DNA of 64,000 bases, taken from Tieghemostelium lacteum (taxonomy: Eukaryota > Evosea > Eumycetozoa > Dictyosteliales > Raperosteliaceae). The DNA lies in the NCBI GenBank assembly GCA_001606155.1, contig LODT01000037.1, forward strand, positions 434,001 to 498,000, in the 5' to 3' direction. The notes below the pieces were generated by a model, which had not been told where the DNA came from, did not search any database, and saw only the letters and a list, made by a program, of their open reading frames with translations. The translations under genes and the position numbers were made by a program. The first letter of the stretch is position 1, and each line of letters starts with the position of its first letter. Positions 11,507 to 17,076 of this stretch are shown piece by piece.

Positions 11507-11959
11507 TCACCAATTATTGAGAGGATTTTCACAGGATTTATTTGGTGAACATTGACAAGGTGGATGTTTAGGATTGAATTCCAATCCAGTGTGAACAGCA
11601 TCACAAAATGGAGGATTTTTAGTATATCTACAACCACAAAGTAACTGTATAGTTTGTTGTTTACTGAGGGTAAATGGAATCGGTTGGAATGGAGTATCTT
11701 TACATGACTTTTGGTCACATAGTGGTTGTTGACCAGTAGTCATCCCACAAGTGCAATAGTAATATTGTTGATCTTTTATCATTCCTCTGACACTGTAAGG
11801 TGCATACATTGGTATTTTAGCTGGTATTAATTTACTCAATCCACATTGACTGCATAATGAAGATTTACTACCTTCTTCAGAACTATTATTATTGTTATTA
11901 TCTATATCGTTACATTGGCACTTTTCAGAATTCTTATTAATATCATCATCATTATTCAT
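11507..11959 (-). CDS. Two-motif CDGSH iron-sulfur protein (CISD3-like)
   Basis: Small protein of the NEET class, which binds redox-active 2Fe-2S clusters through three Cys and one His per motif; CISD3 has two motifs and is mitochondrial. Single exon, 150 residues. Motif 2, CGCRYTKNPPFCDAVH, keeps all four ligands. Motif 1 is aberrant: CTCGMTTGQQPLCDQKSC has one extra residue before the Pro, and the expected His is replaced, with a Cys one position later. The N-terminal 45 residues are Asn/Asp/Ser-rich and the C-terminus adds four more Cys. A CxxC pair lies before motif 1. It is divergently arranged with the iron transporter gene, 91 bp apart. Start is the first ATG in frame (11959). Confidence 0.82.
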   Translation of the reverse strand: MNNDDDINKNSEKCQCNDIDNNNNNSSEEGSKSSLCSQCGLSKLIPAKIPMYAPYSVRGMIKDQQYYYCTCGMTTGQQPLCDQKSCKDTPFQPIPFTLSKQQTIQLLCGCRYTKNPPFCDAVHTGLEFNPKHPPCQCSPNKSCENPLNNW

Positions 11960-12050
11960 ATTGTAATTCAATAATGAATTGTGGAATAATTTAAAATTTT
12001 TTTTTTTGAGTTTTATTTTGCCAAAATCAAGTGTTAAAAGATAAAGTCAT
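11960..12050. promoter_or_regulatory. Short divergent promoter between CDGSH gene and iron transporter gene
   Basis: Only 91 bp separate the two start codons, which point away from each other. The spacer has T-runs and A/T-rich sequence typical of dictyostelid promoters. Shared regulation of the two iron-related genes is an inference; no defined iron-responsive element was recognised. Confidence 0.5.
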
Positions 12051-13060
12051 ATGATACTTCCAAAATCTACAATAACATTAAGAGGAAGCGGTGGAGGAGT
12101 TTCAGTTGCATCTAGAAATTTAAATACAGCAACTGAGGCATACAAAAATGGTGATACAGTTGGATCTAAAAAAGCACATTCACAAGAAAGAAAGATGGAA
12201 GACGAACCTCACAAGAGTAATTCATTCAGGAAAGGATTGGCAAAATACAGTAAAACATTTATAGCAGTTGGCGGATATGCCATACTATTTTCAATTTCTA
12301 TAATACTGGGATTAGAGTCATTTTATAAAAGGTCACATCATCAACAGCAATATAGTATTAGTGGTAGTACTGCTACAACAACGAACGAATATGATGTAAA
12401 ATTAAATATATATATAATACAGCTCAGTACTTTTATCATTTGTCTGGGTGCCATTGGATTCTCTTTGATTGAGGCATCCAACAAGAATATTGAAATCAAT
12501 TTTTATGAATCTGAAAAAAAGAGGGAAGTTTGGGAATACGATAACTATGTGGAAGGTGAACAGAGAGAAATGGTTGAACTCTACTGTCAGAAGGGTATGA
12601 CAGAGTATGATGCAAAAGTTGTAGTTGGTCTGTTAAGTAAATATAAAGATCTCTTTGTTGATATTATGATGGCAGAGGAACTTAATCTCCTACCAGTCGA
12701 ACTCATACTATCACCAATTGAAACCTTCTTATCAACTCTTATATCATTTTTAACATTTGGTATCGCTCCCATACTACCATTCTTTTTATCTCATTGGGTC
12801 TTAAATAGAGATACCATAGTATTGATATACATTATCATTAGTGAAGTTTTATTATTTCTTTTAGGTGCAATTAAAGTAAGTTAAATCATTATCAAGTAAA
12901 ACAACTCATTTACGCAATCTCAGTATATTAATCTGTCATCTTGTAGAGTAAATTTTTTACAGGTATTTGGTGGAAAGAGGGATTAATCTCTTCAGCTACA
13001 GGTATAATATTAATAATCATTTCAAATAGTATTGGAAATTATATTTCCTCTATCATTTAA
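12051..13060 (+). CDS. VIT1/CCC1-family iron (manganese) transporter
   Basis: Membrane transporter of the vacuolar iron transporter family, moving Fe2+/Mn2+ from cytosol into an acidic store. Exon 1 is 12051-12875 and exon 2 is 12947-13060 (phase 0), about 312 residues. The acceptor before AGTAAA is chosen because it yields GAIKSKFFTGIWWKEGL, matching the family's last helix hairpin. Visible: a hydrophilic N-terminus, TM1 and TM2 (about 70-95 and 120-145), then the Glu-rich cytosolic metal-binding segment (VWEYDNYVEGEQREMVELY and LFVDIMMAEELNLLP), then three C-terminal TMs. The N-terminal half is more divergent than the rest, so the metal preference is uncertain. Convergent with the CDGSH-cytochrome b5 gene downstream. 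Confidence 0.85.
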
Positions 13061-13430: not shown

Positions 13431-14348
13431 TTAACATATTATACAACGAGACTGAGCTACAGTTTGTTGATCTTTTGCAAGATGTCCAATAAAGTAATTA
13501 TTATTTAAAAGTTCTAGCATTCTATTGGAATGGAACTGAACGTTTTCAGTACCATCTTTACCTGCAAATCTCAACAATGCATTTTTACCACCAGGATGTG
13601 AGGGTATATAACTGGTGATATCGTATACCTTGTTGTAAATAATCATCCAACAACTATCAACCGTATTATGTTGCGCTATTTCTTCAAGTCTAAAGTAATT
13701 ATTTTGGTTCTGAATCTCTTTTATACTAGTTGGTTTATATTTAATTTGTAGTTGTTGTTGTTGTTGTTTTGGTTCTATTGTATTATTAGTGTCTTTTGTA
13801 TTCTCAGATTGACTACTCCTTATTGTGTTTGGCTTATTCATTATTTTAGATGCCGGTTTTAGTCTGTTTTGATTGATGTTTGTATTGATTTTTTCGGTAC
13901 TTTTGTTTATAGGGTTGTTGTCTATTTTTATATAAAGTGGTGAAAGGTTTGATTTAGTTTCTAAATTAAACTGTTCATGGGTAGAGTCACAATACGGATA
14001 GTTTTTTGATTGTTGACATGTACACATTCTCTGACAATTAGATCCACCACCTTCTAGAGCTTTATTATCATCAACTGATTTCGATAGTTGATAAAGTGAA
14101 TTTGATATACTATTTAATGATTGTGATAGTGGTTTATTTACTTGTACTGTCTGTTCTATTATTATCTTTCTTTCATTATTACTACTACTATTACTAATTT
14201 CTCTTTTATTTTTATTATTTCCTATTTCTTCAATATCATCCGAATTATTTTTACCACAACAACAATTATTGCATTTTAAATTGTCACTATTATTAATATT
14301 ATTACTATTACTACTGTTATTTTGTATATAACTGTTACTTTCTATCAT
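13431..14348 (-). CDS. CDGSH iron-sulfur and cytochrome b5 fusion protein
   Basis: Single exon, 305 residues. After an Asn/Ser-rich N-terminus, residues about 108-125 hold a CDGSH-type motif, [16 protein letters not shown], with all three Cys and the His. A Gln/Asn/Thr-rich linker follows. Residues about 215-292 form a cytochrome b5 domain: [19 protein letters not shown], then the heme-ligand loop HPGGKNALL and the second heme His in FHSNRM. A protein carrying both a 2Fe-2S NEET-type site and a b5 heme suggests internal electron transfer between the two (inference). No TM segment or clear targeting signal is seen; it ends RCIIC. It is the third iron-related gene in 3 kb. Both domains are recognised from motifs; the fusion is a single uninterrupted reading frame, so it is not a joining artefact. 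Confidence 0.87.
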
Positions 14349-14933: not shown

Positions 14934-17076
14934 TTATTTTTGGAATATCAATCTTTCAATATTAATGGCAGGTTTCTCTATACACAAGTGAAGACAGAAT
15001 GCTACAAACATTGCAGACACTAAGTTACCAATAAATGTGTATGAGTACTCTGTCCATGAGTAATGGAACATTTGAGTTGCGGATACAATTCTAATATATA
15101 CAACCAATTCGTGACAGAGATAGGTTGCATAAGTTAGTTTACTGAGTACTTTGAAGATTTTCTGTTCGAGGAACCATTTCAATATACCTCCATATCCATA
15201 GAATGAGCCTATCATGTATCCTACAACACCAACTGGGAACATGGTATGTGAGAATGCATTCCATAGTGCATTTTGAGCTTGATTCCATCCCTTTCCTTGC
15301 CATGCAGTATAAGGAATAAATGTGAAGATAAATGTAAGTGAAAAACCAATGAAGAATATAGTGTATCTTCTCATCCAACAACTATATATCTTTTTCAATA
15401 GTGCATTGTGATCATGGTATAGTATACCTACCATCATACCAACGAGGTATGGTCCAATTCTAAACCATGGTTTTTGGTAAATATCAGTTAGATATATGGA
15501 CCCAGTTGGTGGAGTTTCTTGCATATCAAAGAATGGTTCAATACCATATTTCAAAGTGACACCAAAGCTAATTGAAAATGAAAATAATAAAAGGAATCCC
15601 ATAAGTATCCAACCGGCAATCTTATTCTTCTTGTAGAGACAAAATATCAGAATTGAAAACACAAAGAATTGCATATCATTAGCGAGATACCATGATACTG
15701 GGAAGCATTCTATACCCATATTGACAAGATTATTGTAGTAGAGTAAATTAGTGTACCATGCACCTGGACATGTTGGATCGAGTTCTGTAGTCTGATAAAT
15801 ATAGGCTAAAGGTCCATAACTTAAAAGTGGTCCAATATACATGAATGCAAATAATAGGTAGTAGTATAAAGGTGATAGACGGATGAATCTATGGATTAGA
15901 TACATTATCCAGAATTTAATACCACCATTTCCTCCATCAGGTCTGATTTTCTTTAGTTGTTGTAAAACTGTAAAACACACTAGGAAACCAGAGAGCATAA
16001 AGAAGATATCAACTGCGAATACACCTGCTGGAATAATTTGGAATGAGAATCTTTGGAAGACTTCAAAGATGACTTGGTAGTTGTCGTAGCCTACAAGGGT
16101 ATTAAAGAGTAAACTGTGTCCTAATACTACCCATATCATGGATAGTGTACGAATACCATCTAGTGAGTCAAAGTATGGTCTGTCAGATGAGGTTGGATTG
16201 GTTTTTAGTAGACCTGTGGTAGAGGTTACTGGTGGTGATGGGTATACTGTAATAAAGGATTTGTAGTTCTTTATAAGAGAGAAGCATAGAAGGAGTTTGA
16301 TGAGTAGAGGGGGGTTGTCGGGTTCGAAGAACAGTAGACATTCTCTCTCGAGGAATGCAGGTCCAGAGGTAGAGGATGGGGTATCACTGAGTGATAGGTC
16401 ATTGTCATGGTTCAATAATAAGGATAAATGTTCAGAATGTGTATTGTTGGTATCGTGTTTCTTTTGATTGCATAATCTCTGGTAGTATATCCAGTCAATT
16501 AGAGTACCTATAAACAAGAATAAACCAATAACACCAGAGAATACCAACATAATCTTAGCACCTATGGGGTATACTCTATTTTCTTCATCTTGTGAATTGT
16601 AACAATGAACTAGTGCAGTTGTACTGTTGACTCCTGGTGGTGATAATGAATAACTAGGTACCAGGTATCTAATATCATCTTCTGTGCAAACAGTAGGATA
16701 ACAAACACCAACATAATAGTTTCCCCCTACTCCAGAGTATGGTAATTCATTCTGATAGATACAAAATTGAGAAACATTACTAGGTAAACTCAAACATCCA
16801 TCTATATTACCGAGATCATTCATCTTTAATCCACAATACAGAACCACTATTGTGAAAGTTCAAATTTATCATCAATATTCACCAATTCAAATAAATGAAA
16901 AAGGAGAGATTTAAAAGGGAGAAAAGAGCATATAAAAACTTACTTTCAGTGGCATTAGGGTAGGTGAATTGTAGAATTTCACCCATTGCCTCTTGACATG
17001 GTTGTGATATCAGTGGTGGTACTGAGGCAACTAGTGACACTAATAAAGTCAATAAACAAACTATTATAAATTTCAT
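14934..17076 (-). CDS. NRF-6-like multi-pass acyltransferase 3 family protein
   Basis: Membrane O-acyltransferase-like protein of the 'nose resistant to fluoxetine' type, known in animals for lipid and yolk transport phenotypes; the dictyostelid substrate is unknown. Exon 1 (17076-16944) encodes a signal peptide (MKFIIVCLLTLLVSLVASV) and the start of the extracellular NRF domain. Exon 2 (16846-14934) carries the rest; total about 681 residues. The NRF domain has paired Cys (YCGLKM, FCIYQN, CYPTVCTEDD). After TM1 and a cytosolic linker comes the acyltransferase 3 domain starting YFDSLDGIRTLSMIWVVLGH, whose Arg and His are the conserved residues, and about ten TMs. The junction is phase 1 (A plus TG makes Met), which fits both exons. 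Confidence 0.86.

What the first reader, a model, noticed from the sequence alone, without database searches (positions are those of the whole stretch)
13431..14348. CDGSH iron-sulfur motif fused to a cytochrome b5 domain
One uninterrupted frame carries an intact CDGSH site (Cys3-His1) and an intact b5 heme site (HPGG and FHS). I do not recall this pairing as a standard architecture. It could form a self-contained Fe-S to heme electron path.
Basis: partly seen in the sequence, partly recalled or inferred. Interest (0 to 1): 0.75.

Follow-up and report, generated by a model that had tools for sequence, protein, structure and literature searches.

The report
Amoeba protein joining iron-sulfur and heme
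Social amoebae and some of their relatives carry one protein that joins a mitoNEET-type iron-sulfur domain to a heme-binding cytochrome b5 domain and ends in a conserved signal for a lipid tail, a combination that sits in sequence databases but that we did not find described.

Summary
One uninterrupted 305-codon frame, 13431-14348 on the minus strand, encodes a CDGSH-type [2Fe-2S] domain (3 Cys + 1 His, read CDSTH here) followed by a cytochrome b5 domain with both heme histidines. The same two-domain protein occurs in seven other named dictyostelid records, two Planoprotostelium records and a transcript-derived record, so it is a real, conserved gene. The iron-sulfur half is homologous to mitoNEET (type 1 CISD), not only a motif match.

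The protein ends in a CaaX prenylation box (CIIC), as do 39 of 41 hits carrying the CISD or NEET motif. None of 43 family proteins checked has a transmembrane-like stretch, so a predicted lipid tail stands in for a membrane helix.

Best explanation: a membrane-tethered NEET dimer whose [2Fe-2S] cluster exchanges electrons with heme on the same chain, setting whether the cluster is held or released. Domains and anchor signal are seen in sequence; cofactors, lipidation, electron transfer, location and function are inferred. Deposited and auto-annotated, but not described in the papers found. New variant of a known kind.

The parts
13431..14348 (-). Coding sequence in one uninterrupted frame, 305 aa: N-terminal CISD + C-terminal cytochrome b5 + CaaX box
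   Evidence: ends shared with relatives
14226..14273 (-). Residues 26-41: Cys-rich motif CNNCCC followed by DIEE; function unknown
   Evidence: a CxC/CxxC lies upstream of the CISD in 24 of 43 proteins scanned and a DIEE-like segment in 33 of 43
14073..14171 (-). Residues 60-92: predicted strand (61-65) and helix (74-92) before the cluster-binding motif
   Evidence: AlphaFold2 model, pLDDT about 75 there; conserved in dictyostelids
13920..14024 (-). Residues 109-143: type 1 CISD core, ligands C109 C111 C120 H124, NEET-like tail [12 protein letters not shown]
   Evidence: aligned to CISD1/mitoNEET chains 7yvz and 4f1e; family profile to mitoNEET E 1.9e-15
13704..13919 (-). Residues 144-215: linker between the two domains
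   Evidence: pLDDT under 50 at residues 148-199
13479..13688 (-). Residues 221-290: cytochrome b5 domain, heme ligands H251 and H273
13434..13445 (-). Residues 302-305: C-terminal CaaX box CIIC, predicted prenylation site C302
   Evidence: 39 of 41 hits with CISD or NEET motif end in CaaX

Best explanation
A membrane-tethered redox NEET protein of Amoebozoa. The CISD half forms a dimer holding two [2Fe-2S] clusters, as mitoNEET does; each chain carries a cytochrome b5 heme on a flexible linker; and a prenyl group on the C-terminal CaaX cysteine holds the protein on the cytosolic face of a membrane. A cytochrome b5 reductase reduces the heme, and heme and cluster exchange electrons within the dimer. 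In human NEET proteins the reduced cluster is held and the oxidized one can be handed to acceptors, so the heme most likely sets whether the protein keeps or donates its cluster, or lets the pair act as an electron relay to a membrane partner. Seen in sequence: both domains in one conserved frame, the seven key residues (3 Cys, 1 His, 2 heme His, CaaX Cys), absence of a transmembrane-like stretch. Inferred: cofactor loading, dimerization, prenylation, electron transfer, location and the cluster-gating role.
For: Of 25 aligned relatives (the window's protein included) 25 match Pfam Cyt-b5 and 23 match zf-CDGSH. Of 81 database hits, 41 carry the strict CISD motif or the NEET tail; of these 37 have the strict 3Cys-1His motif, 34 the NEET pattern, 41 both heme histidines and 39 a CaaX end; the 7 that miss the NEET pattern have close forms of it. 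Of the other 40 hits, 9 end in CaaX (they keep the family's b5 sequence but are short or lack the strict CISD) and 31 do not. None of 6 other b5 frames of this genome that I could read to an end has CaaX (the genome scan gave 18 match rows, so most were not read, and introns could change ends). In the window this is the only one of 41 open segments of at least 150 aa ending in CaaX, and one of 3 of 159 of at least 60 aa. None of 43 family proteins reaches a mean hydropathy of 1.6 over 19 residues. Three Prenyltrans-domain matches are present in the genome. The CISD is of mitoNEET type. The tree of 38 members puts nine dictyostelid-type rows together at 100/100. The redox logic rests on PMC8463382 (abstract: oxidized cluster transferable, reduced one kinetically inert) and PMC6006223 (passages: mitoNEET Em about 30 mV); that microsomal b5 lies near 0 mV is recalled.
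Against: No spectra, localization or partner data exist here. The AlphaFold2 models have pTM 0.39 and 0.46 with a disordered linker, so they do not show the two domains packing together. The 50 rows shown by each of three fold searches are b5-domain chains; no CISD structure was listed. Four of the 41 members lack the strict CISD motif: P0024 has Cys for the ligand His, P0030 has one extra residue before the His, and P0031 and P0032 begin inside the motif, probably truncated. P0033 has Gln for the His and P0035 keeps b5 and CaaX with a degraded CISD, so the heme and lipid parts may matter without the cluster. The spacing between heme ligands is 22 residues in 41 of 41 against 24 recalled for microsomal b5. 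P0009 and P0021 lack CaaX in their deposited models.
Confidence: 0.5

Rival explanations
1. The b5 domain is the working part: a lipid-anchored electron donor to membrane enzymes (desaturases, hydroxylases), and the CISD serves mainly as a dimerization or redox-sensing regulator of that donor.
For: The heme ligands are kept in 41 of 41, and P0035 keeps b5 and CaaX where the CISD is degraded. Cytochrome b5 domains donate electrons to lipid enzymes (established knowledge).
Against: The CISD ligands and NEET tail are kept in most members (37 and 34 of 41), more than a bare dimerization role would need.
Confidence: 0.25
2. The CISD is the working part, a cytosolic or membrane Fe-S cluster donor or iron sensor standing in for mitoNEET/NAF-1 in these amoebae, and the b5 domain only binds heme as a signal or ligand sensor rather than relaying electrons.
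For: In this genome it is the only single-motif CDGSH gene among three CDGSH loci found by a six-frame scan. A VIT-family gene and a tandem CDGSH gene lie beside it.
Against: Bis-histidine b5 sites normally carry electrons (established knowledge). The gene neighbourhood does not look conserved in D. dimigraforme or P. violaceum by locus-tag numbers.
Confidence: 0.15
3. Two separate genes or transcripts joined only by a gene-model error.
For: No RNA data for this species were available.
Against: The frame is uninterrupted. Full-length relatives occur in named dictyostelid and Planoprotostelium records. P0051, by its TRINITY name from a transcript assembly, has both domains.
Confidence: 0.02

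Closest known systems
mitoNEET / NAF-1 (CISD1/CISD2, type 1 CISD)
   Same: CISD homologous through the CxC...PxCDxxH core, the N(x)ET...P tail and, in shorter relatives, the D-I/M-E-D/E segment just before it
   Different: Gly of CDGSH is Ser here; no N-terminal membrane helix; extra sequence with a predicted strand and helix before the core; cytochrome b5 domain and CaaX box added
Tail-anchored microsomal / outer-mitochondrial cytochrome b5
   Same: Same fold and both heme histidines
   Different: Sits behind a CISD; ligand spacing 22 residues (24 recalled for microsomal b5); CaaX box instead of a hydrophobic tail
CISD fusions already described (type 5 with glutamate synthase, type 7 with DUF1271; also Fer4_19, Rieske_2, ferritin-like, thioredoxin)
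   Same: CISD joined to another redox or iron domain (PMC3174974 passages; PMC5859297 section 6; PMC5311916 passages)
   Different: In the text read, types 5 and 7 build on type 6 and type 4 CISDs; none is said to join a CISD to cytochrome b5

Membership tests
NEET / type 1 CISD | 3Cys-1His cluster ligands in C-X-C-X2-(S/T)-X3-P-X-C-D-X2-H | tested here: met
   [16 protein letters not shown] at residues 109-124
NEET / type 1 CISD | Gly after CD in the published signature C-X-C-X2-(S/T)-X3-P-X-C-D-G-(S/A/T)-H (PMC5311916) | tested here: not met
   Ser in the window's protein; Gly kept in relatives such as P0018, P0051, P0052. So it is filed as a variant, not as a strict member
NEET / type 1 CISD | Homology to mitoNEET beyond the motif, including the NEET-like tail | tested here: met
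   single sequence to 7yvz E 4.3e-7, aligned through the tail; family profile E 1.9e-15
NEET / type 1 CISD | N-terminal membrane helix of CISD1/CISD2 | tested here: not met
   no MitoNEET_N Pfam match listed; best 19-residue mean hydropathy of the protein 0.49
NEET / type 1 CISD | CISD dimer fold | tested here: inconclusive
   monomer models only; the rows shown by the fold searches are b5-domain chains
NEET / type 1 CISD | Bound redox-active [2Fe-2S] cluster | not testable with these tools
   needs purified protein
Cytochrome b5 | b5 fold and Pfam Cyt-b5 over cut-off | tested here: met
Cytochrome b5 | Two axial heme histidines | tested here: met
   H251, H273; both kept in 41 of 41 members
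CaaX prenylated proteins | C-terminal C-a-a-X | tested here: met
   CIIC; 39 of 41 members
CaaX prenylated proteins | Actual prenylation and membrane association | not testable with these tools
   Prenyltrans-domain genes present; modification itself unseen

The most novel reading that the evidence does not exclude
A heme-gated iron-sulfur cluster donor: NADH-derived electrons reaching the heme of a prenyl-anchored NEET dimer keep its [2Fe-2S] cluster reduced and locked, and heme oxidation releases the cluster to acceptors at a specific membrane. This would be an amoebozoan stand-in for mitoNEET/NAF-1 with the redox switch built into the same chain.
Probability: 0.3. Interest if true: 0.8.

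Novelty: new variant of a known kind. Interest (0 to 1): 0.55.

Why it matters
How mitoNEET-type proteins receive electrons in cells, and whether that controls cluster release, is to my knowledge unsettled. A natural protein that places a heme electron carrier on the same chain lets this be tested in one purified protein and by knockout in D. discoideum (DDB_G0280747). It also bears on the claim that slime-mold CISDs are close to the eukaryotic archetype (PMC5311916 passages; PMC5859297 section 8): in this genome the only single-motif CDGSH gene found is this fusion. A cytochrome b5 domain with a conserved CaaX box instead of a tail helix did not turn up in the two searches made for it (judged from the listings).

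Tried and rejected
Conserved iron-gene cluster: a tandem CDGSH gene, a VIT-family gene and the fusion lie within 2.9 kb, but the relatives' tags are far apart (ACTA71_009470 and ACTA71_006499 on contigs of different length; CYY_009310 and CYY_002902), so the cluster was not used as evidence for the best explanation. Tags are an indirect test; no relative's genomic DNA was available.

Structural match of the CISD half: two AlphaFold2 models and three fold searches. The 50 rows shown by each are b5-domain chains; no CISD structure was among them, which says nothing either way. Pfam Coilin_N and CDC45 matches in 2 of 25 members each were put down to low-complexity sequence, by judgement.

Literature: 10 searches of open-licence PMC papers only. 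Searches found nothing. The others were judged from titles and abstract starts, and (15 of 35; 40 of 126) listed only part. Eight papers were opened, in passages, sections or abstract. No paper seen describes CDGSH joined to cytochrome b5, the gene DDB_G0280747 or a prenylated cytochrome b5. Figure 1 of PMC5311916 shows zf-CDGSH architectures (23 counted in its text); figures are not held, so it could include this one.

Not done: a CISD tree with outgroups; spliced-gene searches (six-frame scans can miss exons split inside a motif); supplementary files.

Full report
What is there. The window lies in an unnamed 23.3 Mb assembly of 43 contigs. The frame 13431-14348 on the minus strand reads as a 305-residue protein without interruption. 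Pfam finds Cyt-b5 at residues 221-290 (E 2.4e-20) and zf-CDGSH at 108-125 (E 8.7e-6, 26.3 bits, under the 29.5 cut-off). The cluster motif reads [16 protein letters not shown], with Ser for the Gly of CDGSH. The heme ligands are H251 and H273. The tree places the window's protein with eight other dictyostelid-type rows (seven named, one unnamed) at 100/100 support, so the organism is most likely a dictyostelid social amoeba (inference).

Relatives. The first search returned 45 proteins and a profile search 80, 81 different ones together. Named ones carrying both Pfam domains are from Dictyostelium discoideum (DDB_G0280747, 130 of 255 aligned residues identical), D. citrinum, D. dimigraforme, D. 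purpureum, Polysphondylium violaceum, Acytostelium subglobosum, Cavenderia fasciculata, and two from Planoprotostelium fungivorum; a Heterostelium album record (P0037) shows only Cyt-b5. Many others are unnamed environmental sequences, and P0051 is from EukProt with a TRINITY transcript name. The tree of 38 members, rooted at its midpoint, has one deep split (100/99) between a group with dictyostelids and a group with Planoprotostelium. Branching among the named dictyostelids looks broadly like species kinship as I recall it, with some weak forks. The gene is therefore old within Amoebozoa and inherited vertically as far as this sample shows.

The iron-sulfur half. The window's CISD piece matches CISD1/mitoNEET chains best (7yvz, E 4.3e-7), ahead of CISD3 (1.8e-5), CISD2 (5.7e-5) and plant NEET (0.0013), and the alignment runs on through the NEET tail. 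A profile of ten short relatives matches mitoNEET at E 1.9e-15 and also aligns their DIED/DIEE segment with the DIED/DMED segment of mitoNEET. In the window's protein a DIEE lies much further upstream, behind a Cys-rich CNNCCC; whether it is the same element is unsettled. A 2011 survey that classified CISDs into types named type 1 in metazoa, land plants, green algae, a choanoflagellate, diatoms, brown algae and oomycetes, and for Dictyostelium and Polysphondylium only type 6 (PMC3174974, section 13). In this genome three CDGSH loci were found, two tandem-motif and this single-motif one.

The C-terminus. The protein ends CIIC. Of 81 hits, 41 have the strict CISD motif or the NEET tail, and 39 of these end in C-x-aliphatic-x; the last residue is S 23, V 6, C 5, M 4, L 1. 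The two exceptions, P0009 and P0021, end unlike the others and have the highest hydropathy of the set; gene-model error is a guess. Of the other 40 hits, 9 end in CaaX; they keep the family's b5 sequence but are short or lack the strict CISD. The remaining 31 do not. Six other b5 frames read in this genome do not end in CaaX, but the genome scan gave 18 match rows, so most were not read and introns could change the ends. None of 43 family proteins has a transmembrane-like stretch at a mean hydropathy of 1.6 over 19 residues. The genome has three Prenyltrans-domain matches. Prenylation itself is predicted, not shown.

Mechanism. NEET clusters are transferable when oxidized and kinetically inert when reduced (PMC8463382, abstract). 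mitoNEET has Em about 30 mV, the His ligand makes the cluster labile, and His to Cys stabilizes it and makes Em far more negative, around -300 mV (PMC6006223, passages). Microsomal cytochrome b5 near 0 mV is recalled. Electron exchange between the two would therefore be nearly isoenergetic. I take as most likely that reductase-fed heme sets the redox state of the cluster on a membrane surface. The main rival is a b5 electron donor with the CISD as its dimerizing regulator, supported by P0035, which keeps b5 and CaaX with a degraded CISD, and by P0024 and P0033, whose ligand His is replaced by Cys and Gln.

Known or new. Two-domain records exist, named hypothetical or cytochrome b5 heme-binding proteins. 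No paper seen in ten searches describes the combination (limits in Tried and rejected). One caveat is Figure 1 of PMC5311916, which could not be viewed. I rate it a new variant of a known kind: NEET by homology, cytochrome b5 by domain, with a membrane anchor signal not typical of either.

Noticed in passing
window 11507-11971 (-): A tandem CDGSH protein (154 aa) 1.5 kb from the fusion. Its first motif reads CTCGMTTGQQPLCDQKSC: Cys stands about where the ligand His is expected, with extra residues, and the four Cys are invariant in 6 of 6 dictyostelid sequences aligned. Possibly a natural counterpart of the laboratory His-to-Cys variants that stabilize NEET clusters.
   Followed up: partly
window 12051-12884 (+): A VIT-family gene (named after vacuolar iron transporters) between the two CDGSH genes, apparently continuing after an intron; Pfam VIT1 E 1.7e-23 over profile positions 60-183 only. 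Two longer VIT matches lie elsewhere in the genome.
   Followed up: partly
window 14226-14273 (-): Cys-rich CNNCCC plus DIEE near the N-terminus of the fusion; a CxC or CxxC lies upstream of the CISD in 24 of 43 family proteins. Could be an acylation site, a metal site or neither.
   Followed up: partly
window 13434-14348 (-), heme site: The two heme-ligand histidines are 22 residues apart in 41 of 41 family members, two fewer than recalled for microsomal cytochrome b5.
   Followed up: partly
L009 1381-1764 (+): Elsewhere in the genome, a second tandem-type CDGSH gene whose first motif has an intact CDGSH and a NEET-like tail.
   Followed up: no
window 14934-16847 (-): Membrane acyltransferase-family frame next to the fusion (Pfam Acyl_transf_3 E 6.9e-26, weak NRF match).
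   Followed up: no
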